Origin: a virus | DNA length: 52,932 nucleotides | Strand: one strand, 5' to 3' | IMG/VR virus record: IMGVR_UViG_3300020578_004316 | Location: 1-52,932 of that record | Part shown: piece by piece, positions 9 to 42,038 of the stretch | How positions within the stretch are numbered: the first letter of the stretch is position 1 | Layout: each line of letters starts with the position of its first letter | Program-made: the position numbers and the translations under genes | The notes under the pieces: generated by a model | Told to the model about the DNA's origin: nothing | Databases searched by the model: none | Seen by the model: the letters and a program-made list of their open reading frames with translations, nothing else

Positions 9-95
9 CATACAGACAGATTCATAGCCTGTCGATTAAAAAATTTTAGGAGCTGTGGCCCAATCTTTGGATTGGGTCACTTTTTTTTGTATATT
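9..95. repeat. Direct repeat copy 1 (terminator plus promoter module)
   Basis: This 87-base unit recurs at 641-728 with one substitution (C33 to T) and one extra A in an A-run. It contains a small hairpin (GACAG 15-19 with CTGTC 29-33, 9-base loop), a strong terminator (55-88) and a host-type promoter (66-97). In the second copy the hairpin pairing is kept by a G-T wobble. The copies flank the gene at 110-613. Confidence 0.93.
55..88 (+). terminator. Rho-independent terminator in repeat copy 1
   Basis: An 11-bp stem (55-65 with 70-80, one G-T pair) closes a TTTG loop and is followed by eight T residues. It would end transcription arriving from upstream of the window. Confidence 0.9.
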
Positions 96-97
96 TA
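66..97 (+). promoter_or_regulatory. Host-type (Bacteroidota) promoter overlapping the terminator
   Basis: TTTG (66-69), a 20-base spacer and TATATTTA (90-97) match the Bacteroidota primary-sigma pattern TTTG-N19-21-TAnnTTTG. The -33 element is the loop of the terminator at 55-88. The same geometry occurs at 699, 29700, 42987 and 45259. Promoter activity is inferred. Confidence 0.6.
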
Positions 98-25590: not shown

Positions 25591-27348
25591 ATGGCAGAAA
25601 CAATTGTATCACCTGGTGTATTAGCAATAGAAAATGACCAATCTTTTATTACACAAGCTCCTGTACAAGCAGGTGCAGCTATTATAGGACCAACGGTTAA
25701 AGGTAAAGTAGGTATTCCTACATTAGTTACAACATTTAGTGAATACCAAAATAAATTTGGCACTACTTTTTTAAGTGGAAGCCAAACCTATACCTACCTT
25801 ACCTCTATTTCAGCCTTTAATTATTTTAATAGTGGTGGTACTTCATTATTAGTAACTCGTGTAGTTAATGGTAGTACAACTACTAATTGGACTCCTGCAA
25901 CATCATCATTTATTTCTGCATCTGCTCATGCTGTTGGTGCTCCTTATAATACAGATGTATTTGTTTTAGAAACAATTTCTGAAGGAGAAATAATGAATAA
26001 TACAGGTCCTACAGGATCTAATGGAACTTTATTAAGCGGTTCAGCAAACAATTTTAGATGGCAAATAGTATCCCCAGATATTAATACCGGTACTTTTACA
26101 GTATTAATTAGACAAGGAAATGATACTACAAATTTTATGTCTATATTAGAAACTTGGGGCCCTGTATCTTTAGACCCATTTTCTGCAAATTATATTGAAA
26201 AGATAATAGGTAATCAAGTTGAAACTATTTTAAATGACCCAACAACAGGTGAATATTATGTTCAACTTTTAGGAAATTATCCAAATCAATCATCATATGT
26301 TAGAGTTAAACGAGTAAACCAAACTACACCAGATTATTTTGATAACAATGGCATTCCAAAAAATCAATTTACTGGTTCTTTACCTATTGTTAGCAGTGGA
26401 TCATTTGGAGATGGGAAAGGAAGCAATATCCCCACAGGGGTTGCAGGAGCATATTATGAAACTATCTCAGCAACTAATATCCAAGGCTTAACAGCTAATG
26501 ATTACACAGAATCTATTGCTTTATTAGCAAATAAAGACGCATACAATTATAATTTTATAACAGCTCCTGGGTTAATAGGAAATTCTTCATATCATTTTAA
26601 CACAGTTCAACAACTAATTACAATGGTTCAAGATAGAAGAGATGCTATGGCTATAGTAGATGTTGTTGGATATAATTCAAATTTAACCCCTGTAACTACC
26701 GCAGCTAGTGCTTTTGATACATCATACGCAGCAACTTATTGGCCTTGGTTAAAAACTATTGACCCCAATTATGGTAATCAAGTTTGGGTTCCCGCATCAA
26801 CAATGATCCCAGGTGTATATGCATTTAATGATAATGTAGCATTTCCTTGGTTTGCACCTGCAGGCATTAATAGAGGTCTTATGACAACAGTAGTTCAAAC
26901 TGAAAGAGTATTAACTCAAACAAATAGAGATTCACTTTATCAAGGAAATGTAAATCCAATTGCAACATTTCCTGGATCCGGGGTAACAGTATTTGGGCAA
27001 AAAACATTACAAAAGAAAAAAAGTGCTTTAGATCGTGTAAATGTACGACGTTTATTAATTGAACTTAAAAACTACATATCTCAAATAGGAGACACATTTG
27101 TATTTGAACAAAATGATGCTGTTACTAGGAATAATTTTGTAGCAGCTATTAACCCATATTTAGCTTCTGTTCAACAACAACAAGGTTTAACAGCTTTTAG
27201 AGTTATCATGGATGAATCAAATAACCCACCTTTAGTAGTAGATAATAATAAATTAGTAGGACAAATTTATTTACAACCTACTAGAACGGCTGAATTTATT
27301 ATATTAGACTTTAATATATTACCTACAGGTGCAACATTTCCTGCTTAG
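25591..27348 (+). CDS. 18: Tail sheath protein 1 (T4 gp18-like)
   Basis: 585 residues of the contractile sheath. Signatures: MAETIVSPGVLAIENDQSF, then VQAGAAIIGPTVKG at the N-terminus; a central WPWLKTIDPNYG; GVYAFNDNVAFPWFAPAGIN, then NPIATFPGSGVTVFGQKTL; DRVNVRRLLIELKNYI; and the C-terminal TRTAEFIILDFNILPTGA. The sheath contracts to drive the tube through the host envelope. A second, related full-length sheath gene follows directly. Confidence 0.95.
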   Translation: MAETIVSPGVLAIENDQSFITQAPVQAGAAIIGPTVKGKVGIPTLVTTFSEYQNKFGTTFLSGSQTYTYLTSISAFNYFNSGGTSLLVTRVVNGSTTTNWTPATSSFISASAHAVGAPYNTDVFVLETISEGEIMNNTGPTGSNGTLLSGSANNFRWQIVSPDINTGTFTVLIRQGNDTTNFMSILETWGPVSLDPFSANYIEKIIGNQVETILNDPTTGEYYVQLLGNYPNQSSYVRVKRVNQTTPDYFDNNGIPKNQFTGSLPIVSSGSFGDGKGSNIPTGVAGAYYETISATNIQGLTANDYTESIALLANKDAYNYNFITAPGLIGNSSYHFNTVQQLITMVQDRRDAMAIVDVVGYNSNLTPVTTAASAFDTSYAATYWPWLKTIDPNYGNQVWVPASTMIPGVYAFNDNVAFPWFAPAGINRGLMTTVVQTERVLTQTNRDSLYQGNVNPIATFPGSGVTVFGQKTLQKKKSALDRVNVRRLLIELKNYISQIGDTFVFEQNDAVTRNNFVAAINPYLASVQQQQGLTAFRVIMDESNNPPLVVDNNKLVGQIYLQPTRTAEFIILDFNILPTGATFPA

Positions 27349-27394: not shown

Positions 27395-29125
27395 ATGGCA
27401 AAATTCACAGTTTCTCCTGGAGTAGCAGTTAGCGAAATAGATAATACATTTTTAACAGGACAACCAGTTCAAGCAGGTGCGGCTATTATAGGACCAACAG
27501 TTAAAGGTCCAGTTGAAAAACCAACTTTAGTAACATCTTATTCAGATTTTCAAATGTTATTTGGAGATACTTTTATTAGTGGTGGTAATGCTTATTCATA
27601 TTTAACTTCAATTGCTGCTTACAATTATTTTAATTACGGTGGTACTTCATTGTTAGTGGCCCGTGTTGTTTCAGGATCATATTCTTCTGCTACTAGTAGC
27701 TACATGCCTACAGGATCTAGTGGCCCAACTTCAGGTTTCTCTCCATTTGTTTTAGAAACAATTTCTGAAGGTACCATTATGAACAACTCAGGTTCAGGAG
27801 CTTTAGGTTCATTGCTTCCAGGAAGTAAAGAAAATGTAAGGTGGGAAGTCACTAATGTAAATACTGGGTCAGGTACATTTAATGTATTGATTAGAAGAGG
27901 AGACGACACTCAAACTAATAAAATTGTTTTAGAGTCTTGGAACAATGTAAATTTAGATCCTAATTCATCTCGTTTTATTGCTCAAGTAATTGGAGATCAA
28001 AAATTAAACTATGATTCTGGCAATGTTCAAATGGTATTATCTGGAAGTTATCCAAATAATTCAAAATTTGTTCGTGTAAAAGAAGTAAATTATACTACTC
28101 CAAACTATTTAAATTCAAATGGAGTTGTAGCTAATCCATTATACACAGGGTCTCTTCCAGCAAATGGAAGTGGTTCTTTAGGTGGTGCTTTTGGAGGAGC
28201 CACAGGAACTGTTTTAATTTCATCAGCTATTAATTTTTATGAAAATATAAATTCATCTAATACTCAAGGATTAGTAGGAAGTGATTATAATACTATGATT
28301 GCTTTATTTGGTAATCAAGAAGCATATCAATTTAACCTTTTATTTGCCCCTGGATTATTAAACGATACTCATACTGGTCAAATTACAAATATTATTACTA
28401 ATACAATTGCTAGAGGTGATAGTATGTTTGTAGCAGATTTAGTAGCATATGGAAGTACAGTTTCTCAAGCTATTACACAAGCTCAAACTCGTGATACTTC
28501 ATATGCTGCTTCATATTGGCCTTGGGTTCGCATTATTGACCCATCAACAGGAAAACATATTTGGGCCCCAGCTTCAACTGTAATACCAGGTGTATACGCC
28601 TTTAACGATAAAGTATCTGCTCCTTGGTTTGCACCTGCAGGTATTAATCGTGGTGGTTTAGGTACAGTATTACAAGCAGAATTAAAATTAACTCAAAATA
28701 ATAGAGATTCTTTATATTCAAATAATATTAATCCAATTGCTACGTTACCTAAACAAGGTGTTGTAGTATTTGGACAAAAAACTTTACAAAAAGCAGATTC
28801 AGCTCTTGATCGTGTAAATGTAAGACGTTTATTAATTGAACTTAAAAATTATATCCGCCAAATTGCTGATACAATTGTATTTGAACAAAATACAATTCAA
28901 ACTAGAACTTCATTTTTAGCTAGAGTTAATCCATATTTAGAAGCTATCCAACAAAAACAAGGATTATATGCTTATAAAGTAATAATGGATGATTCAAATA
29001 ATGGACCAGCTGTAATTGATCAAAACCAATTAATTGGACAAATTTATATTCAACCAACACGTACCGCTGAATTTATTTCTTTGGATTTTATTTTACTCCC
29101 AACAGGAGCAGAATTTCCAGGGTAA
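27395..29125 (+). CDS. Tail sheath protein 2 (T4 gp18 paralogue)
   Basis: 576 residues, with all sheath signatures of its neighbour in the same order (VQAGAAIIGPTVKG, GVYAFNDKVSAPWFAPAGIN, DRVNVRRLLIELKNYI, TRTAEFISLDFILLPTGAEF). The ends are well conserved between the two and the middle, surface-exposed part differs strongly. Neither copy shows a frameshift or loss, so both are probably functional. The two may form a mixed sheath or serve different parts of the tail (inference). Confidence 0.94.
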   Translation: MAKFTVSPGVAVSEIDNTFLTGQPVQAGAAIIGPTVKGPVEKPTLVTSYSDFQMLFGDTFISGGNAYSYLTSIAAYNYFNYGGTSLLVARVVSGSYSSATSSYMPTGSSGPTSGFSPFVLETISEGTIMNNSGSGALGSLLPGSKENVRWEVTNVNTGSGTFNVLIRRGDDTQTNKIVLESWNNVNLDPNSSRFIAQVIGDQKLNYDSGNVQMVLSGSYPNNSKFVRVKEVNYTTPNYLNSNGVVANPLYTGSLPANGSGSLGGAFGGATGTVLISSAINFYENINSSNTQGLVGSDYNTMIALFGNQEAYQFNLLFAPGLLNDTHTGQITNIITNTIARGDSMFVADLVAYGSTVSQAITQAQTRDTSYAASYWPWVRIIDPSTGKHIWAPASTVIPGVYAFNDKVSAPWFAPAGINRGGLGTVLQAELKLTQNNRDSLYSNNINPIATLPKQGVVVFGQKTLQKADSALDRVNVRRLLIELKNYIRQIADTIVFEQNTIQTRTSFLARVNPYLEAIQQKQGLYAYKVIMDDSNNGPAVIDQNQLIGQIYIQPTRTAEFISLDFILLPTGAEFPG

Positions 29126-29140
29126 AAGTTTGAAATTTAG

Positions 29141-29156
29141 ATATTTATAATAAAAT
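29141..29156 (+). promoter_or_regulatory. T4-late-like promoter box upstream of the tail tube gene
   Basis: ATATTTATAATAAAAT, 28 bases before the ATG at 29172, the longest spacing among the standard boxes. Confidence 0.68.
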
Positions 29157-29171
29157 TAAAATAGAAAACAA

Positions 29172-29660
29172 ATGGCAATTTTAAACCCAAACGAAATATT
29201 TTACACAGCGTTTGAACCAAAACAAACAAACCGTTTTATCCTTTATTTAGATGGGATTCCTTCATATCTTGTTAAACAAATAGGAGCTGTTTCTTTAACC
29301 CAATCTACAGTTACTCTTAATCACATTAATATTCAACGTTATGTGAAAGGAAAAACAAAATGGAATACTATCCAATTTACAATGTATGAATCAATTACTC
29401 CTTCTGGAGCCCAAGCAGTAATGGAATGGGTACGTTTAGGACATGAATCAGTAACAGGTAGAGATGGGTATTCTGATTTCTATAAAAAAGATCTTACATT
29501 TAACGTTTTAGGTCCTGTAGGTGATATTGTTTCTGAATGGATTATTAAAGGAGCTTTTATTACTGAAGTTAACTTTGGAGACTATAACTGGGATGATGAT
29601 GGAACCCCAGTAAATATCCAAGTAACAGTTCAACCTGATTACTGTATTTTAAACTACTAA
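29172..29660 (+). CDS. 19: Tail tube protein (T4 gp19-like)
   Basis: 162 residues, the usual size. AFEPKQTNRFILYLDGIPSY, KWNTIQFTMYESITPSGAQ and the C-terminal FGDYNWDDDGTPVNIQVTV fit gp19, whose hexameric rings stack to form the inner tube. It follows the sheath genes as in T4 and ends at a strong terminator (29685). Confidence 0.93.
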   Translation: MAILNPNEIFYTAFEPKQTNRFILYLDGIPSYLVKQIGAVSLTQSTVTLNHINIQRYVKGKTKWNTIQFTMYESITPSGAQAVMEWVRLGHESVTGRDGYSDFYKKDLTFNVLGPVGDIVSEWIIKGAFITEVNFGDYNWDDDGTPVNIQVTVQPDYCILNY

Positions 29661-29684: not shown

Positions 29685-29716
29685 AAAGCTCCAAAGAAAT
29701 TTGGGGCTTTTATTTT
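29685..29716 (+). terminator. Rho-independent terminator after the tube gene
   Basis: GCTCCAAA (29688-29695) pairs with TTTGGGGC (29700-29707) around GAAA, extended by three A-T pairs and followed by a T-rich run. Its 3' arm supplies the TTTG of the promoter at 29700. Confidence 0.88.
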
Positions 29717-29731
29717 CTTTTAATATATTAA
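29700..29731 (+). promoter_or_regulatory. Host-type promoter of the T9SS-protein gene, overlapping the terminator
   Basis: TTTG (29700-29703), N20 and TATATTAA (29724-29731), with the same spacing and -7 box as the promoters at 699 and 45259. Only four bases separate the -7 element from the ATG at 29736, so the transcript would be leaderless or nearly so. No late box precedes this gene, although its neighbours have one. Confidence 0.58.
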
Positions 29732-29735
29732 GGCT

Positions 29736-32198
29736 ATGAAAAAAATTAATTTACTTTTATTTATACTACTAACAGGTTTTATTTATAGTCAATATTGCCC
29801 TTATTTAGGTCCTAATCAAATATTACCTTGTGGTGTAACTTCAACTACTTTAACCGCAGATTTAAGCCAATGTGGAGCAGGTAATAACCCTAATCAAACT
29901 ACAAATTATACAGTTTCTCAAATACTATATGTGCCCCAAGTTAATACAGGTACTTTAGTAGCCTTAAGTGATGACTCCCAATCAGGCACGTTTAACATTG
30001 GATTTACTTTTTGTTTTTATGGACAAACCTATACTCAGTTTCGAATAGGCTCAAATGGTTGGATCTCGTTGGGTGCAGGTGTACAGCCAACTACATTTAC
30101 AACACAAGCAATACCATCAGTAAACGCAGCAGTACCAAAAAATTGCATAATGGGCCCGTGGCAAGATTGGAATCCTAGTCTAGGCGGACAAATACGCTAC
30201 CAAACCTCAGGCACGGCTCCTTGCCGCAAATTAACAGTAAGTTGGATCGGAGTGCCTATGTTTTCGTGCACTAACTTACAAGGCACATTTCATATAGTAA
30301 TTTATGAATCAACTAATTATATTGAAAGTTATCTTGCTAATAAACCTGGTTGTAATCAATGGGCTAATGGTACTGCAGTGCATGGCGTACATAATGTTGT
30401 AGGAACGCAGGCAGTAACAGTACCTGGTAGAAATTCAACTCAATGGACTGCAGTAAATAATGCTTGGAGATGGACACCTAGTGGTGCACCTGTTTTGCCA
30501 ACTTTAGTTTGGTATCAAGTAGGAAATCCTGTTCCTATTGCTCAAAACGTAAATCAAATTACAGTTACACCTTCTCAAGGTGGAGCTTACTATACTTGTC
30601 ATTTGGAGTATCCGGCTTGTAATGCAGGTTGGGCAACTTGTAGTGCATTAGGTGGTGGACTAGGGCCTGATACTATTCAAGTTGTTCCGGGTCCACCAAA
30701 TTTAAATCAACCGAATTTTGTAGTAACAAATCCATTATGTAACGGAGATTGTAACGGATCTATTACAGTAAACCCAACAAACGGTACTCCTCCTATAGGA
30801 TATGTTTGGAGTAGCGGCCAAAATACCCAAACAATTAACAATCTATGTGCAGGAACTTATACAGTAACTGTAACAGATGCAAACAACTGCACTATTACAG
30901 CAAATACTACATTAATAGATCCACCTATTTTACAAGTGCCATTGATGGCAGCAACAAACCCTATTTGTTTTGGAGATTGTAATGGAACTGCAACAGCAAA
31001 CTCAATTGATGGTATTGCTCCATACACTTATTTATGGGGAGATGGACAAACAACACAAACCGCAACTAATTTATGTGCAGGAGCTTATAATGTTATAGTA
31101 ACAGATGCAAATGGGTGTCCTGCTTTAAATACTATTGCTTTAGTAAACCCTCCAATGGTTGTAGTAGGAAATATTACTTCACTAGATACAATCTGTTATT
31201 TATCTTCTAATGAAACATATTCAGTACCAAGTTTAGGTGCAGGATATTCTTACACTTGGTCAAGTGTTGGAAACATCACTTCAGGTCAAGGAACAAATAG
31301 TATTACAGTAGATTGGTCTCTATTTCCTGCAGGATTTATGCCTGGAGCTGTTAATGTTGTAGCGATAAATCAATTTGGTTGTACAAGCTTACCACAAGAT
31401 GTTAATGTTTATATTTTAAATGTTTTACCTACGATAGACTCGATTACTTCATTATGTGATTATAGTAATTGTGTAACATTAACTGGAGCTCCTGTTGGGG
31501 GAACATTTACAGGAAATGGAGTAAACGGGAATACATTTTGTCCTTCACCTTTATTAGCAGGAACCAATACAATAACATATACTTATGTGCAATCAAATTG
31601 TACTTTTGATACTACTCGCCAAATAACTGTTTATTCTAGACCTGTTATTTCATCTATACAAAATGATTTAGGAAACCTAACATCTGAATTTATAGAATTG
31701 TGTGAAGGCGATAGTATAGGAAGAATTTATAGTGCAACTGTTTTAGGAGGTGGAGATGTAGTGTGGATTTTAAACCAAGATAGTATTACAAACCCAATTT
31801 TACCTATTTCTTGGGATAGTTTTGGATCCTTTACATTTTCAGCTGTAGGATACCAAAACGGATGTGTATCATACCCAACATCTTATTTGACAACTATTCA
31901 AAGATGCCCTGAAGAATTAATTTATATCCCAAATACATTTACCCCTGATGGGAATGAAATCAACCATGCTTGGCACCCAGTCTTTACTTCAGGTTTTGAC
32001 CCACAAGATTTTTATTTAACTATCTATAACAGATGGGGAGAATTAATGTTTAAAAGTTATAATAGTACAGTTCCTTGGGATGGAACATACAACAATACAA
32101 AATGTCAAGATGGAGTTTATACTTGGGTTATAGTTTATGGAGACAAAAACACAGATAAAGAAACATTAATTAAAGGAAGTGTTACCCTTATTAGATAG
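29736..32198 (+). CDS. Secreted surface protein with SprB repeats and T9SS type B sorting domain
   Basis: 820 residues. Signal peptide MKKINLLLFILLTGFIYS, cleavage before Gln19. A Cys-containing beta-rich N-terminal domain (about 40-250; GFTFCFYGQTYTQFRIGSNG) is of a kind found in Bacteroidota surface proteins. Two SprB-type repeats follow (about 331-395 and 407-470), each with NPxCxGDCNG, LCAGxYxVxVTDANxC and a closing PP. The C-terminus (about 728-820; IPNTFTPDGNEINHAWHP, then LTIYNRWGELMF, WDGTYNN, DGVYTW) is the gliding-motility-associated CHU_C domain, which directs export and surface anchoring by type IX secretion. Its GC content is locally higher (about 50% at 30181-30240). It sits between tube and baseplate genes with its own promoter, so it is probably a host-derived moron; a virion role is possible. 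Confidence 0.9.
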   Translation: MKKINLLLFILLTGFIYSQYCPYLGPNQILPCGVTSTTLTADLSQCGAGNNPNQTTNYTVSQILYVPQVNTGTLVALSDDSQSGTFNIGFTFCFYGQTYTQFRIGSNGWISLGAGVQPTTFTTQAIPSVNAAVPKNCIMGPWQDWNPSLGGQIRYQTSGTAPCRKLTVSWIGVPMFSCTNLQGTFHIVIYESTNYIESYLANKPGCNQWANGTAVHGVHNVVGTQAVTVPGRNSTQWTAVNNAWRWTPSGAPVLPTLVWYQVGNPVPIAQNVNQITVTPSQGGAYYTCHLEYPACNAGWATCSALGGGLGPDTIQVVPGPPNLNQPNFVVTNPLCNGDCNGSITVNPTNGTPPIGYVWSSGQNTQTINNLCAGTYTVTVTDANNCTITANTTLIDPPILQVPLMAATNPICFGDCNGTATANSIDGIAPYTYLWGDGQTTQTATNLCAGAYNVIVTDANGCPALNTIALVNPPMVVVGNITSLDTICYLSSNETYSVPSLGAGYSYTWSSVGNITSGQGTNSITVDWSLFPAGFMPGAVNVVAINQFGCTSLPQDVNVYILNVLPTIDSITSLCDYSNCVTLTGAPVGGTFTGNGVNGNTFCPSPLLAGTNTITYTYVQSNCTFDTTRQITVYSRPVISSIQNDLGNLTSEFIELCEGDSIGRIYSATVLGGGDVVWILNQDSITNPILPISWDSFGSFTFSAVGYQNGCVSYPTSYLTTIQRCPEELIYIPNTFTPDGNEINHAWHPVFTSGFDPQDFYLTIYNRWGELMFKSYNSTVPWDGTYNNTKCQDGVYTWVIVYGDKNTDKETLIKGSVTLIR

Positions 32199-32216: not shown

Positions 32217-32588
32217 ATGAAACTGAACCACTTACGTACTTTAGTTAAAGAAGAGCTTAATAAGCAATTAAATGAAAAATACCAAGATAAATTTAAAATG
32301 GTTGGTATGCTTATTTCTAACATTAAACAACGCCCCCAAAAAGAAATATTTTCCGACATCCGCTCTATCCCCGGAGTTACAGTAGCATCTTCAAAAGAAC
32401 CTATGCCATATAATGAACAAAATACAGAAAAATTTCAAACTATTTTAACTATTAAAGTAGATGGTCATCCTTGGATTACAAAAGGTGGTTTTGATCGTTC
32501 AAAAATGGAAGACATACGTAAAGAAATATTAAAAGTAGAAGGAGTTTTATCATATAATGTAAATCCTGATAATATCTCTTCTCTTTAA
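32217..32588 (+). CDS. Small alpha/beta protein with leader-like N-terminus
   Basis: 123 residues, not recognised. The N-terminus MKLNHLRTLVKEELNKQLNE resembles the leaders of the proteins at 3067 and 44734. The remainder has a beta-alpha-beta rhythm (SDIRSIPGVTVASS, TILTIKVDGHPW, MEDIRKEILKVEGVLSYNV) that suggests a ferredoxin-like fold, as in small regulatory or binding domains. It resumes the phage tail module after the T9SS gene. Role unknown. Confidence 0.68.
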   Translation: MKLNHLRTLVKEELNKQLNEKYQDKFKMVGMLISNIKQRPQKEIFSDIRSIPGVTVASSKEPMPYNEQNTEKFQTILTIKVDGHPWITKGGFDRSKMEDIRKEILKVEGVLSYNVNPDNISSL

Positions 32589-38858: not shown

Positions 38859-41800
38859 ATGTCAATAATAGGACAGGAAATAGAAAGTTATACTATAAGC
38901 CAAATTAATGCAAGACAAAAGTTACATGGAAGTGGAACTTCTACTAGTAGAACACCACAACAAATTAGTGTATTAAATTCAAATTCTTCTTGGGTAAAAT
39001 TAGCATCTGGAATTTCAGTAAATGCTAGTAGATTAAGAGATATACAAGTAAGTACATCTTATAGTGGGATGGAGTTAGCAAAAAATAATGTTTTATTTGG
39101 AGGAACTTCTAAATTAGTAGGAGGACAAAGACTTCAACAAAAAGAAGGATTTTTACCCTACCAATCCAATAGTTCATATTTACATGGAGATTTTGGATAT
39201 TCTCCTATGCCCGGAATTATAAGTGCTGATATAAAAGCATTAAATAGGGGTTCGCTTAAAAAAGCAACAGTTAAACTTACTGCTAATAATAAACAACAAT
39301 TTGATGTTATTGATCTTCTTTATCTAAGATTAGGATATACTGTTTTACTTGAATGGGGAAATAGTATGTACACTTCTAACGGTACCGATAGACAATTAGT
39401 TCAACAAACCATTGTAGAAGATGAAAAAAGATTTTTTAACCCAGAATATGGAAAAGGAAAGTCTCATAGAGACATACTTTTCGTAATAGAGTATTATCGA
39501 GATAAATATAAGGGAAATTATGATGGGCTTTTAGGTAAAGTATCAAATTTTAATTGGACTTTTCAATCTGATGGGTCATATGATATAGAAATTACTATAA
39601 TAAGTTTAGGTGATGTAGTTGAATCTTTAAAAACTAATATTTCATCAAACCGACAATTAAGCCTATTTATTGAAAATACTCTTGCTGCTAACCCCTCAGG
39701 AAGTGAAGGAGGAAATAATCTTATTGAAGAAAATGCTGATTCTAATGATATAGCAGCAATGTTATATTGTTGGAAATATGTTAATAAAGATTTATTAACT
39801 TATCAATCCTATGAAGATAGCATTTATATAAGACGTCCAGATGAAGGAGATAGATTTGTAGGAGCATTTTTAGAAACCTCAACTACTCTTACTTCTACAT
39901 TTGTTACATATAGATTTGCTTACCTAGCTTATGGATATGATATAGAAATATACCCAGACTTAAGTCCAGATACTTACTATAAATCTGTTGAAATACCTTA
40001 TGATCTTAATATTTATCCAAATCACGAAGAAGAAGCTCAAAAAGAACGTAAATCAAGAGATGATAAATTAATAACGGATGGAAAAAATCGATTAAGTTTT
40101 GTTAATCCTAGTGGTATTCAAGATTATAAAAGAGTTTTAGCAGGTTATGAAAGTTTAGGGAATAAAAAAACAACTATTGATAGTCCTTTAACTAATTTTA
40201 GTAAAAAAGATGCATGTTTTATAACTACTGAACCTGATAAACAATTTTATTTAAGATTTGGAGCTTTATTACAGTATTTAAGAACTACTATTATTCCTAA
40301 AGTAGATACATCTAATTCGAATTATAAGAATAAACCACCTGTATTTAGTATAAATACTGATGTATATGGAACTGGAGACTTAGGAAATTATATGTATTCG
40401 TTACCAAATCAAATTTCTTTAGATCCAAGAGTTTGTATAGTAAGAAATGATAAATTTCAAACTTCTAATGGAATAACAGAAGTATACAGACATTTATTGC
40501 CTTTTAGATCTGAAGATTATTCATCAAAACCTAACCCTAATAAGGCATATATTATGAATATATATCTAAATTTTGAATTTATAATAAATTGCATTAATAA
40601 TAATTTAGATGAAAAAGGAGATATTGGAATATTTGGATTTTTAAAAGCAATATGTGATGGTTTAAATAAATCTTTAGGAGGAATAAATAATTTAGAACCT
40701 ATCATAAATGAAGATACTAATACTCTTTATATTATTGATACTACTCCTATCCCTGGTATAGGTTCTGAAACAGCTTCTTATACATTACAATTATTTGGGT
40801 ATAATGCTTCTACTTCTAACTTTGTTAGAAACGTTGATTTAAAAACAGCTATCACCCCAGAATATGCAACTATGATTACAGTAGGAGCAACCGCAGGAGG
40901 ATATGTTAAAGGAATAGAAGCTACAGCATTTTCAAAATGGAATGATGGGTTAACCGATAGATTTAAAGAAAAACTTATCCCGGGAAATGAAAATTCTCAA
41001 GAAGAAAACGGTGAAGATGAAGCTGCATCAAACTATATTAATAAATTTTTATCGGCTAAAGCAGGCAATGCTTCTCGTTATGGGTTTAAAGGGAACATAG
41101 TAAGTACCAATGCTAAAAACCTTCAAATAGACCCAGGTGCTATTGAAAAAAATATCTCAGTTGTAACAGAATACTATAAATATTTAATTGCATCTCAAAA
41201 GAACCAACAAGGTGGAACTGTTGGGTTTATTCCGTTTAAATTGAATTTTTCTATGGATGGAATATCGGGTATAAAGATATACAACAAATTACACGTTGAT
41301 ACTCGTTTTTTACCTAAAGCATATGGAACTGAACTAGATTTAATTGTAACAGGAGTTAGCCATAAATTATCAAATGATGACTGGGAAACAAATATTGAAA
41401 CTACATTAATTCCTAAAACAAATGAATTAAAAGATTTAGTTATTACAGCTGAAGCTATAGTAGAAGATATAAACAATAACCCACCTAAATACGATAAACC
41501 AACTATGACTCCACCTCCTAGTTTAATTCAAGCTATGAAAGAATATGGTATAACTGATCCTTTAGAAAAAGCTCATTTTTTAGCTCAATGCAACACTGAA
41601 TCCGCTAGATTTTCTGCAACAACCGAATTTGCTTCTGGAGAAGCATATGAAGGTAGAAAAGATTTAGGCAATACATCTCCTGGAGACGGAAAAAAATATA
41701 AAGGAAGAGGTTATATTCAATTAACAGGAAAATCAAATTACATTAGTTATAATGACTATCTTAAAACTAAAGGTAAAACAGATGATGTAGTAAAAAATCC

Positions 41801-42038
41801 TACATTAGTAGCTACTAAATATGCCGCTGATGTATCTGTTTATTTTTGGAAAGTAGCAGGTCCTAAAGGAGTTAAAAAATTTTCCCAAAAAGCAAAAGAA
41901 GGATCATCTGTTGCAATAATTAACAAAATAGGATCTTGGATAAATGGAAAAAATCCCCCAAATGGATATCAAGATAGAATTAATAAATTTAAATACTATT
42001 GGGATATTTTACAAAAAGACCCTAACGCTTTTTCTTAA
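38859..42038 (+). CDS. Baseplate hub protein fused to a GH19-type lytic domain
   Basis: 1059 residues. The N-terminal about 270 residues (GIISADIKALNRGSLKKATV, LLEWGNSMYTSNGT, GKVSNFNWTFQSDGSYDIEI) look like a gp27-type hub domain. The middle is long and unassigned. Residues about 885-1055 form a glycoside hydrolase 19 / chitinase-like lysozyme domain: AHFLAQCNTESARF with the catalytic-type Glu914, then GRGYIQLTGKSNY at 949-961. Peptidoglycan cutting during entry is likely, the role that the gp5 lysozyme plays in T4. In T4 hub and lysozyme are separate chains, so this single chain is notable. It could also act in lysis. Confidence 0.82.
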   Translation: MSIIGQEIESYTISQINARQKLHGSGTSTSRTPQQISVLNSNSSWVKLASGISVNASRLRDIQVSTSYSGMELAKNNVLFGGTSKLVGGQRLQQKEGFLPYQSNSSYLHGDFGYSPMPGIISADIKALNRGSLKKATVKLTANNKQQFDVIDLLYLRLGYTVLLEWGNSMYTSNGTDRQLVQQTIVEDEKRFFNPEYGKGKSHRDILFVIEYYRDKYKGNYDGLLGKVSNFNWTFQSDGSYDIEITIISLGDVVESLKTNISSNRQLSLFIENTLAANPSGSEGGNNLIEENADSNDIAAMLYCWKYVNKDLLTYQSYEDSIYIRRPDEGDRFVGAFLETSTTLTSTFVTYRFAYLAYGYDIEIYPDLSPDTYYKSVEIPYDLNIYPNHEEEAQKERKSRDDKLITDGKNRLSFVNPSGIQDYKRVLAGYESLGNKKTTIDSPLTNFSKKDACFITTEPDKQFYLRFGALLQYLRTTIIPKVDTSNSNYKNKPPVFSINTDVYGTGDLGNYMYSLPNQISLDPRVCIVRNDKFQTSNGITEVYRHLLPFRSEDYSSKPNPNKAYIMNIYLNFEFIINCINNNLDEKGDIGIFGFLKAICDGLNKSLGGINNLEPIINEDTNTLYIIDTTPIPGIGSETASYTLQLFGYNASTSNFVRNVDLKTAITPEYATMITVGATAGGYVKGIEATAFSKWNDGLTDRFKEKLIPGNENSQEENGEDEAASNYINKFLSAKAGNASRYGFKGNIVSTNAKNLQIDPGAIEKNISVVTEYYKYLIASQKNQQGGTVGFIPFKLNFSMDGISGIKIYNKLHVDTRFLPKAYGTELDLIVTGVSHKLSNDDWETNIETTLIPKTNELKDLVITAEAIVEDINNNPPKYDKPTMTPPPSLIQAMKEYGITDPLEKAHFLAQCNTESARFSATTEFASGEAYEGRKDLGNTSPGDGKKYKGRGYIQLTGKSNYISYNDYLKTKGKTDDVVKNPTLVATKYAADVSVYFWKVAGPKGVKKFSQKAKEGSSVAIINKIGSWINGKNPPNGYQDRINKFKYYWDILQKDPNAFS

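What the first reader, a model, noticed from the sequence alone, without database searches (positions are those of the whole stretch)
29736..32198. T9SS-exported, SprB-repeat surface protein encoded inside the phage tail module
The protein has a signal peptide, two SprB-type repeats and a C-terminal gliding-motility/CHU_C sorting domain, a combination used by Bacteroidota for type IX secretion. It lies between tail tube and baseplate genes, is bracketed by a terminator and its own host-type promoter, and has locally higher GC. A phage that places an adhesin-like protein on the surface of its host could block superinfection, alter gliding or attachment, or spread infected cells. I know of no described phage system of this kind.
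Basis: partly seen in the sequence, partly recalled or inferred. Interest (0 to 1): 0.87.

Follow-up and report, generated by a model that had tools for sequence, protein, structure and literature searches.

The report
Phage gene for host-surface T9SS protein
A virus of Bacteroidota bacteria carries, inside its tail-gene block, a swappable gene for a protein built to be exported by the host's own type IX secretion machine onto the infected cell's surface; related viruses share it widely, and it most likely changes how the infected cell meets other viruses or surfaces, although its effect is untested.

Summary
ORF 29736-32198 encodes 820 aa: a signal-peptide-like N-terminus, a ~300-residue domain without a Pfam family, two SprB repeats, a PKD-like domain and a type B T9SS sorting domain (TIGR04131/CHU_C above curated cut-offs). 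It is not an assembly join: the order tail tube - this gene - g32217 recurs in many independent contigs. The phage is T4-like, related to Flavobacterium phage immuto, which lacks the gene. The site is a cassette: 44 of 66 distinct backgrounds carry an allele (420-820 aa), 22 are empty, with flanks up to 98.6% identical between states. Alleles interleave in a tree with copies in other large phages where the gene lies outside this tail context; most bacterial homologues branch apart. All aligned alleles keep the sorting domain; dN/dS is 0.18. Flanking genes carry a phage late motif (tube 63/63, g32217 66/66); this gene never does (0/44). No phage record searched encodes a PorP/SprF shuttle. Best reading: a host-derived moron, exported by Sec and the host T9SS, displayed on the infected cell and probably affecting adsorption or attachment. 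Phage T9SS cargo was published in 2019-2020, so the principle is known; this type B, SprB-bearing, widely exchanged form is a new variant.

The parts
29736..32198 (+). CDS, 820 aa: T9SS type B cargo protein (called T9SSp here)
29736..29789 (+). signal-peptide-like N-terminus, residues 1-18, predicted cut before Gln19
   Evidence: sequence; hydropathy; pattern kept across 41 homologues with Gln19 invariant. No SignalP run
29790..30692 (+). N-terminal ~300-residue domain, the most conserved part; no Pfam family; no PDB fold match at E<=0.001
   Evidence: model pLDDT 92.2, pTM 0.87; fold searches; paralogues in bacterial genomes
30717..30824 (+). SprB repeat 1 (residues 328-363)
30960..31073 (+). 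SprB repeat 2 (about residues 409-446; limits read from the sequence)
   Evidence: one search reports two stretches; limits by eye
31161..31388 (+). PKD_6-like domain (residues 476-551)
31923..32195 (+). type B T9SS sorting domain (CHU_C / TIGR04131)
   Evidence: present in 41 of 41 aligned homologues
29172..29660 (+). tail tube gene immediately upstream
   Evidence: PHROG 4542, E 4e-24; late motif at 29141
29685..29710 (+). intrinsic-terminator-like hairpin after the tail tube; also present in empty sites
29700..29729 (+). TTTG-N20-TATATT element, possible host-type promoter sharing its TTTG with the terminator arm
   Evidence: exact in 37 of 39 distinct leaders; published consensus TTTG/TANNTTTG in PMC6847099
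32203..32211 (+). phage late motif ATATTTATA of the downstream gene
32217..32588 (+). g32217, downstream neighbour of unknown function that bounds the cassette site

Best explanation
T9SSp is a moron taken from a Bacteroidota surface-protein family. It is made during infection outside the late-gene control of its tail neighbours in this phage group, sent through the inner membrane by Sec, moved across the outer membrane by the host's type IX system through its type B C-terminal signal, handled by a host PorP/SprF-type shuttle, and displayed on the infected cell rather than built into the virion. Its most likely benefit is to change adsorption: it masks or competes with host T9SS adhesins (SprB/RemA-like) that other phages use, giving superinfection exclusion. 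Shown here: gene, domains, shared locus, cassette behaviour, purifying selection, lack of the late motif, lack of a phage shuttle. Inferred: actual export, timing, function. The confidence below is for surface display as a non-virion moron; superinfection exclusion itself I put at about 0.35.
For: Sorting domain over curated cut-offs and in 41 of 41 homologues at 27-87% identity. Signal-peptide-like start in the aligned alleles. Purifying selection: median dN/dS 0.18 overall, 0.13 N-domain, 0.14 sorting domain. Cassette: 44 occupied and 22 empty among 66 distinct backgrounds, flanks up to 98.6% identical between states, so it is dispensable for the tail. Late motif before tail tube 63/63 and g32217 66/66 but T9SSp 0/44. 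Copies at this site and in other phage contexts interleave (at least 4 label changes forced), 12 of 14 bacterial copies on a separate well-supported branch. No PorP/SprF match in 23 phage records against 11 of 11 bacterial genomes. Literature: type B signals need cognate or shared orphan shuttles of low abundance (PMC12618676) and are held on the surface by PorP-like proteins (PMC9143113); gliding-protein mutations give phage resistance and SprB/RemA may be receptors (PMC13288928).
Against: No experiment on export or function. No SignalP-type prediction. Some of the same phages carry further proteins with T9SS signals, so adsorption need not be the theme. The promoter fits the host consensus only in part and would give a nearly leaderless mRNA, unusual in F. 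johnsoniae (PMC6847099). In other phage lineages (L020, L040, L054) a late-like ATATTTAT does precede the gene, so separate timing is not general. The phage type B signal is only 31-40% identical to the bacterial signals compared over their length, so shuttle recognition is uncertain.
Confidence: 0.68

Rival explanations
1. Virion component: a tail or head decoration protein made with the tail genes and carried by the particle.
For: Lies between tail tube and baseplate hub; one weak PHROG match to Hoc-like decoration through an Ig-like stretch, E 2.5e-8.
Against: Signal-peptide-like start and T9SS sorting domain in every aligned allele; absent from a third of close relatives with the same tail genes and from the isolate immuto; no late motif (0/44); in other phages it lies away from homologous tail genes.
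Confidence: 0.07
2. Attachment or motility modifier: the protein makes infected cells stick, aggregate or glide differently so that progeny are released near new hosts.
For: SprB repeats and an architecture like Bacteroidota adhesins; by sequence and fold the repeats match the Aureispira grappling hook protein GhpA; [quoted passage not shown]
Against: Short alleles without SprB repeats keep only the N-domain and sorting domain, so the repeats are not essential; a lytic cycle leaves little time for behaviour.
Confidence: 0.2
3. Shuttle or translocon competitor: the type B signal occupies scarce PorP/SprF shuttles and lowers surface SprB, so the effect is depletion of host adhesins rather than an action of its own N-domain.
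For: Shuttles are scarce and limit secretion of overproduced type B cargo (PMC12618676); phages bring no shuttle.
Against: The N-domain, not only the sorting domain, is under strong purifying selection (dN/dS 0.13) and is the most conserved part, which pure competition does not explain.
Confidence: 0.13
4. Secreted effector against neighbouring microbes or a nutrient-capture protein.
For: The N-domain is uncharacterised with no solved relative; T9SS often exports enzymes.
Against: No catalytic family found; type B signals usually tether proteins to the surface.
Confidence: 0.08
5. Assembly join to host DNA.
For: Host-like protein with somewhat higher GC.
Against: Same junctions in dozens of independent contigs with diverged sequences.
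Confidence: 0.01

Closest known systems
Cryophage T9SS type A cargo genes (Bellas et al. 2020, PMC7468147)
   Same: Bacteroidetes phage genes with T9SS sorting domains, hypervariable between variants, proposed to reach the host surface and affect superinfection or competition
   Different: Type A signals on an endoglucanase, a GH39 and a PA14 protein in a 76 kb phage; here type B signal, SprB repeats and a conserved N-domain, in T4-like and jumbo-size phages, at one defined tail locus in the T4-like group
T9SS-sorting-domain proteins near the head genes of BACON-carrying crAss-like relatives (de Jonge et al. 2019, PMC6949934)
   Same: Phage proteins with T9SS sorting domains beside structural genes
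   Different: BACON-linked, upstream of the head section; no SprB repeats described in the passages read
SprB and other type B T9SS cargo of Flavobacterium johnsoniae (PMC12618676, PMC9143113)
   Same: Signal peptide, type B sorting domain, SprB-type repeats
   Different: Phage-encoded, 820 aa instead of a 669 kDa adhesin, no shuttle gene beside it (like the three orphan type B cargos)
Bacteroidota chromosomal proteins with the same N-domain and type B signal (L061, L062, L084)
   Same: N-domain, repeats, CHU_C; several lack an adjacent shuttle gene
   Different: 830-1248 aa; L061, L063, L065 and L084 are 27-37% identical to T9SSp overall; separate branch for most
GhpA grappling-hook protein of Aureispira (9flp)
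   Same: Related repeats by sequence and fold
   Different: 5898 aa; the matched stretch is the repeat region, not the N-domain

Membership tests
T9SS type B cargo (TIGR04131) | C-terminal sorting domain over the curated cut-off | tested here: met
   41.6 bits against 35; CHU_C 50.8 against 27
T9SS type B cargo (TIGR04131) | Sec signal peptide | tested here: inconclusive
   Typical pattern, hydropathy 2.1, conserved; no dedicated predictor
T9SS type B cargo (TIGR04131) | cognate or shared PorP/SprF shuttle | tested here: inconclusive
   None in 23 phage records, present in 11 of 11 bacterial genomes; must come from the host, which is unidentified
T9SS type B cargo (TIGR04131) | secretion shown | not testable with these tools
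   needs an experiment
SprB adhesin | SprB repeats plus type B signal | tested here: met
   two SprB repeats, CHU_C
SprB adhesin | very large size, adjacent sprF | tested here: not met
   820 aa, no adjacent or phage-borne sprF. Not filed as SprB
Phage virion decoration protein (Hoc-like) | found in the virion, late expression | tested here: inconclusive
   No late motif 0/44; export signals; virion proteomics not available
Phage moron | extra gene, present or absent at the same site between close relatives | tested here: met
   44 occupied and 22 empty backgrounds, flanks up to 98.6% identical
Phage moron | own promoter and terminator | tested here: inconclusive
   terminator precedes it; promoter match partial; no terminator directly after it
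Superinfection exclusion protein | blocks a second phage | not testable with these tools
   needs adsorption and plating assays

The most novel reading that the evidence does not exclude
A protein family shared by unrelated large Bacteroidota phages (T4-like to jumbo) serves as a common, exchangeable surface shield: each phage makes the host's own gliding-linked secretion machine display a phage-chosen adhesin-like protein that blocks rivals' receptors, with allele switching driven by competition between phages.
Probability: 0.28. Interest if true: 0.82.

Novelty: new variant of a known kind. Interest (0 to 1): 0.62.

Why it matters
It extends phage use of type IX secretion from a few reported cases to a widely distributed gene family with type B signals, found in T4-like phages and in records up to 634 kb. 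If the protein reaches the surface, these phages remodel the same adhesin layer that several Bacteroidota phages need for entry, which would give a direct test of surface-level superinfection exclusion in this phylum. The conserved N-domain also marks an unstudied family of bacterial surface proteins.

Tried and rejected
Assembly chimera: rejected by recurrence in many contigs. Virion decoration from the Hoc-like PHROG match: only an Ig-like stretch. Phage-encoded shuttle: none found; the first search had no positive control, repaired with bacterial genomes. N-domain as a known fold: no Pfam family, no PDB fold at E<=0.001, a few viral matches of unnamed proteins; a nidogen-like fold suspected from the sequence was not confirmed. 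GhpA similarity: confined to repeats. sigma-70-type promoter scan: fewer hits than shuffles, uninformative. Assumption that the gene avoids late-type motifs everywhere: rejected, since L020, L040 and L054 carry ATATTTAT before it. L061/L062 as mis-binned phage: rejected, neighbours are chromosomal. Literature search by CHU_C and SprB-repeat terms gave nothing relevant.

Full report
Observation. Curated profiles support its parts: two SprB repeats, a PKD-like domain and a C-terminal CHU_C domain, all over Pfam cut-offs, and TIGR04131 over its cut-off. The first 18 residues look like a Sec signal peptide followed by a Gln that is invariant across the alignment. No dedicated signal-peptide program was available.

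The phage. The window is a 52.9 kb IMG/VR virus record. It has T4-type terminase, gp20 portal and gp23 capsid, two tail sheaths, tail tube, baseplate hub, tape measure and an endolysin-bearing protein, then DNA polymerase, gp32, helicase and ribonucleotide reductase genes. The nearest isolates are Flavobacterium phages vB_FspM_immuto (capsid 56%, tube 58% identity). In immuto the tube is followed directly by the baseplate hub, and no TIGR04131 match is present.

A cassette, not a join. A scan of IMG/VR gave 59 loci with the protein; the wider search with the N-domain gave 197 related stretches, of which 80 were kept. In the phage group of the window the order is sheath, sheath, tube, T9SSp, g32217, baseplate hub. 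A separate search by the neighbour g32217 found both occupied and empty sites. Counting distinct tube sequences, 44 are occupied and 22 empty; the proportion is biased because part of the set was found through T9SSp itself. Alleles are about 820, 733, 654 and 420-442 aa; one is a stub of 82 aa (L100) and one is split into two frames (L126). Flanks of an occupied and an empty site can be 98.6% identical (L124 and L162). This is what a dispensable, exchanged moron looks like.

Exchange between phages. Other copies, mostly 47-65% identical, lie in contigs up to 436 kb and in a 634 kb record (LR745206), with none of the window's tail genes in the flanks examined (up to 8 kb each side). Of 23 records searched (the window included), 16 have a terminase-type match, 12 of them strong. 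In a tree of the N-terminal 330 residues the two contexts interleave; well-supported branches force at least four changes of context, while 12 of 14 bacterial copies form a separate branch. Long branches and a row of doubtful placement (L092) limit the deeper forks. The bacterial relatives L061 and L062 are on real chromosomes, so the likely source is a Bacteroidota surface-protein family. The N-domain occurs 2-11 times in each of four bacterial genomes tested.

Selection. Nine alleles of the 820-aa class give a median dN/dS of 0.18; N-domain 0.13, sorting domain 0.14, SprB part 0.24. The two ends are conserved and the middle varies from none to two SprB repeats. All 41 aligned proteins keep CHU_C. 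The N-domain is therefore probably the working core, and export is kept.

Control. Late genes of this phage are preceded by ATATTTATA: 14 of 16 occurrences in the window stand before start codons, 0.6 expected. The motif precedes the tube in 63 of 63 backgrounds, g32217 in 44 of 44 occupied and 22 of 22 empty ones, and T9SSp in 0 of 44. T9SSp instead follows the tube terminator with TTTG-N20-TATATT (spacing 20 in most) in 37 of 39 distinct leaders. The published Bacteroidetes consensus is TTTG/TANNTTTG (PMC6847099), so the match is partial; the TTTG is part of the terminator stem, which confounds its conservation; and an RNA from there would have almost no leader. Similar elements precede the DNA polymerase and gp32 genes, with 5 such elements before genes against 1.5 expected. 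Early or separate expression is therefore plausible, not shown. In other phage lineages an ATATTTAT motif does precede the gene.

Export route. None of 23 phage records has a PorP/SprF match; all 11 bacterial genomes with homologues do, so the profile works. Type B cargo needs a cognate shuttle, but three orphan cargos of F. johnsoniae share one (PMC12618676), and several bacterial relatives of T9SSp also lack an adjacent shuttle gene. The phage protein probably uses a host shuttle; which one is unknown. PorP-like proteins hold type B cargo on the surface (PMC9143113).

Function. Gliding-machinery proteins matter for adsorption in related hosts and SprB/RemA may be receptors (PMC13288928). Masking or displacing them would give superinfection exclusion; I hold this at about 0.35, with attachment or motility changes (0.2) and shuttle competition (0.13) next. 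The N-domain fold has no solved relative at E<=0.001.

Novelty. Phage-encoded T9SS cargo and its possible role in superinfection exclusion were published by Bellas et al. 2020 (PMC7468147), and T9SS-sorting-domain proteins in crAss-like relatives by de Jonge et al. 2019 (PMC6949934). New here, as far as these searches reach: the type B, SprB-bearing family, its wide spread and exchange among large phages, the defined cassette site behind the tail tube, and its exclusion from the late-motif set in this group.

Noticed in passing
window, before late genes (e.g. 25564, 27373, 29141, 32203, 33654): A phage late-promoter-like motif ATATTTATAAnnAAAAT stands 6-23 nt before the start codons of structural genes; 14 of 16 copies are upstream of starts.
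   Followed up: yes
window 66-96 and 699-729: The stretch TTTGGATTGGGTCACTTTTTTTTGTATATT occurs twice near the left end, before two small ORFs.
   Followed up: no
window 25591-27348 and 27395-29125: Two tandem tail sheath genes, both matching PHROG 23; relatives keep both, immuto has one.
   Followed up: no
window 38859-42038: A 1059-aa protein in the baseplate region carries an endolysin/chitinase-like C-terminal domain (residues 887-1053).
   Followed up: no
records of L026, L048, L049, L051 (G006, G014, G015, G017): These phages also have a second short open frame (190-198 aa) with a TIGR04131 signal.
   Followed up: no
7 of 25 phage records, including those of L029, L036, L161, LR745206, LR756502: Type A T9SS signals (PF18962) over cut-off also occur in large Bacteroidota phage records.
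   Followed up: partly
L020:10524-12842: A second gene with a signal-peptide-like start and an Ig_7 (CHU_C-associated) domain lies directly behind T9SSp in this phage; no sorting domain was found.
   Followed up: partly
L022:7215-7682, L029:5392-5817: An FKBP-type peptidyl-prolyl isomerase-like gene on the opposite strand lies upstream of T9SSp in the jumbo-size group (recognised by eye).
   Followed up: no
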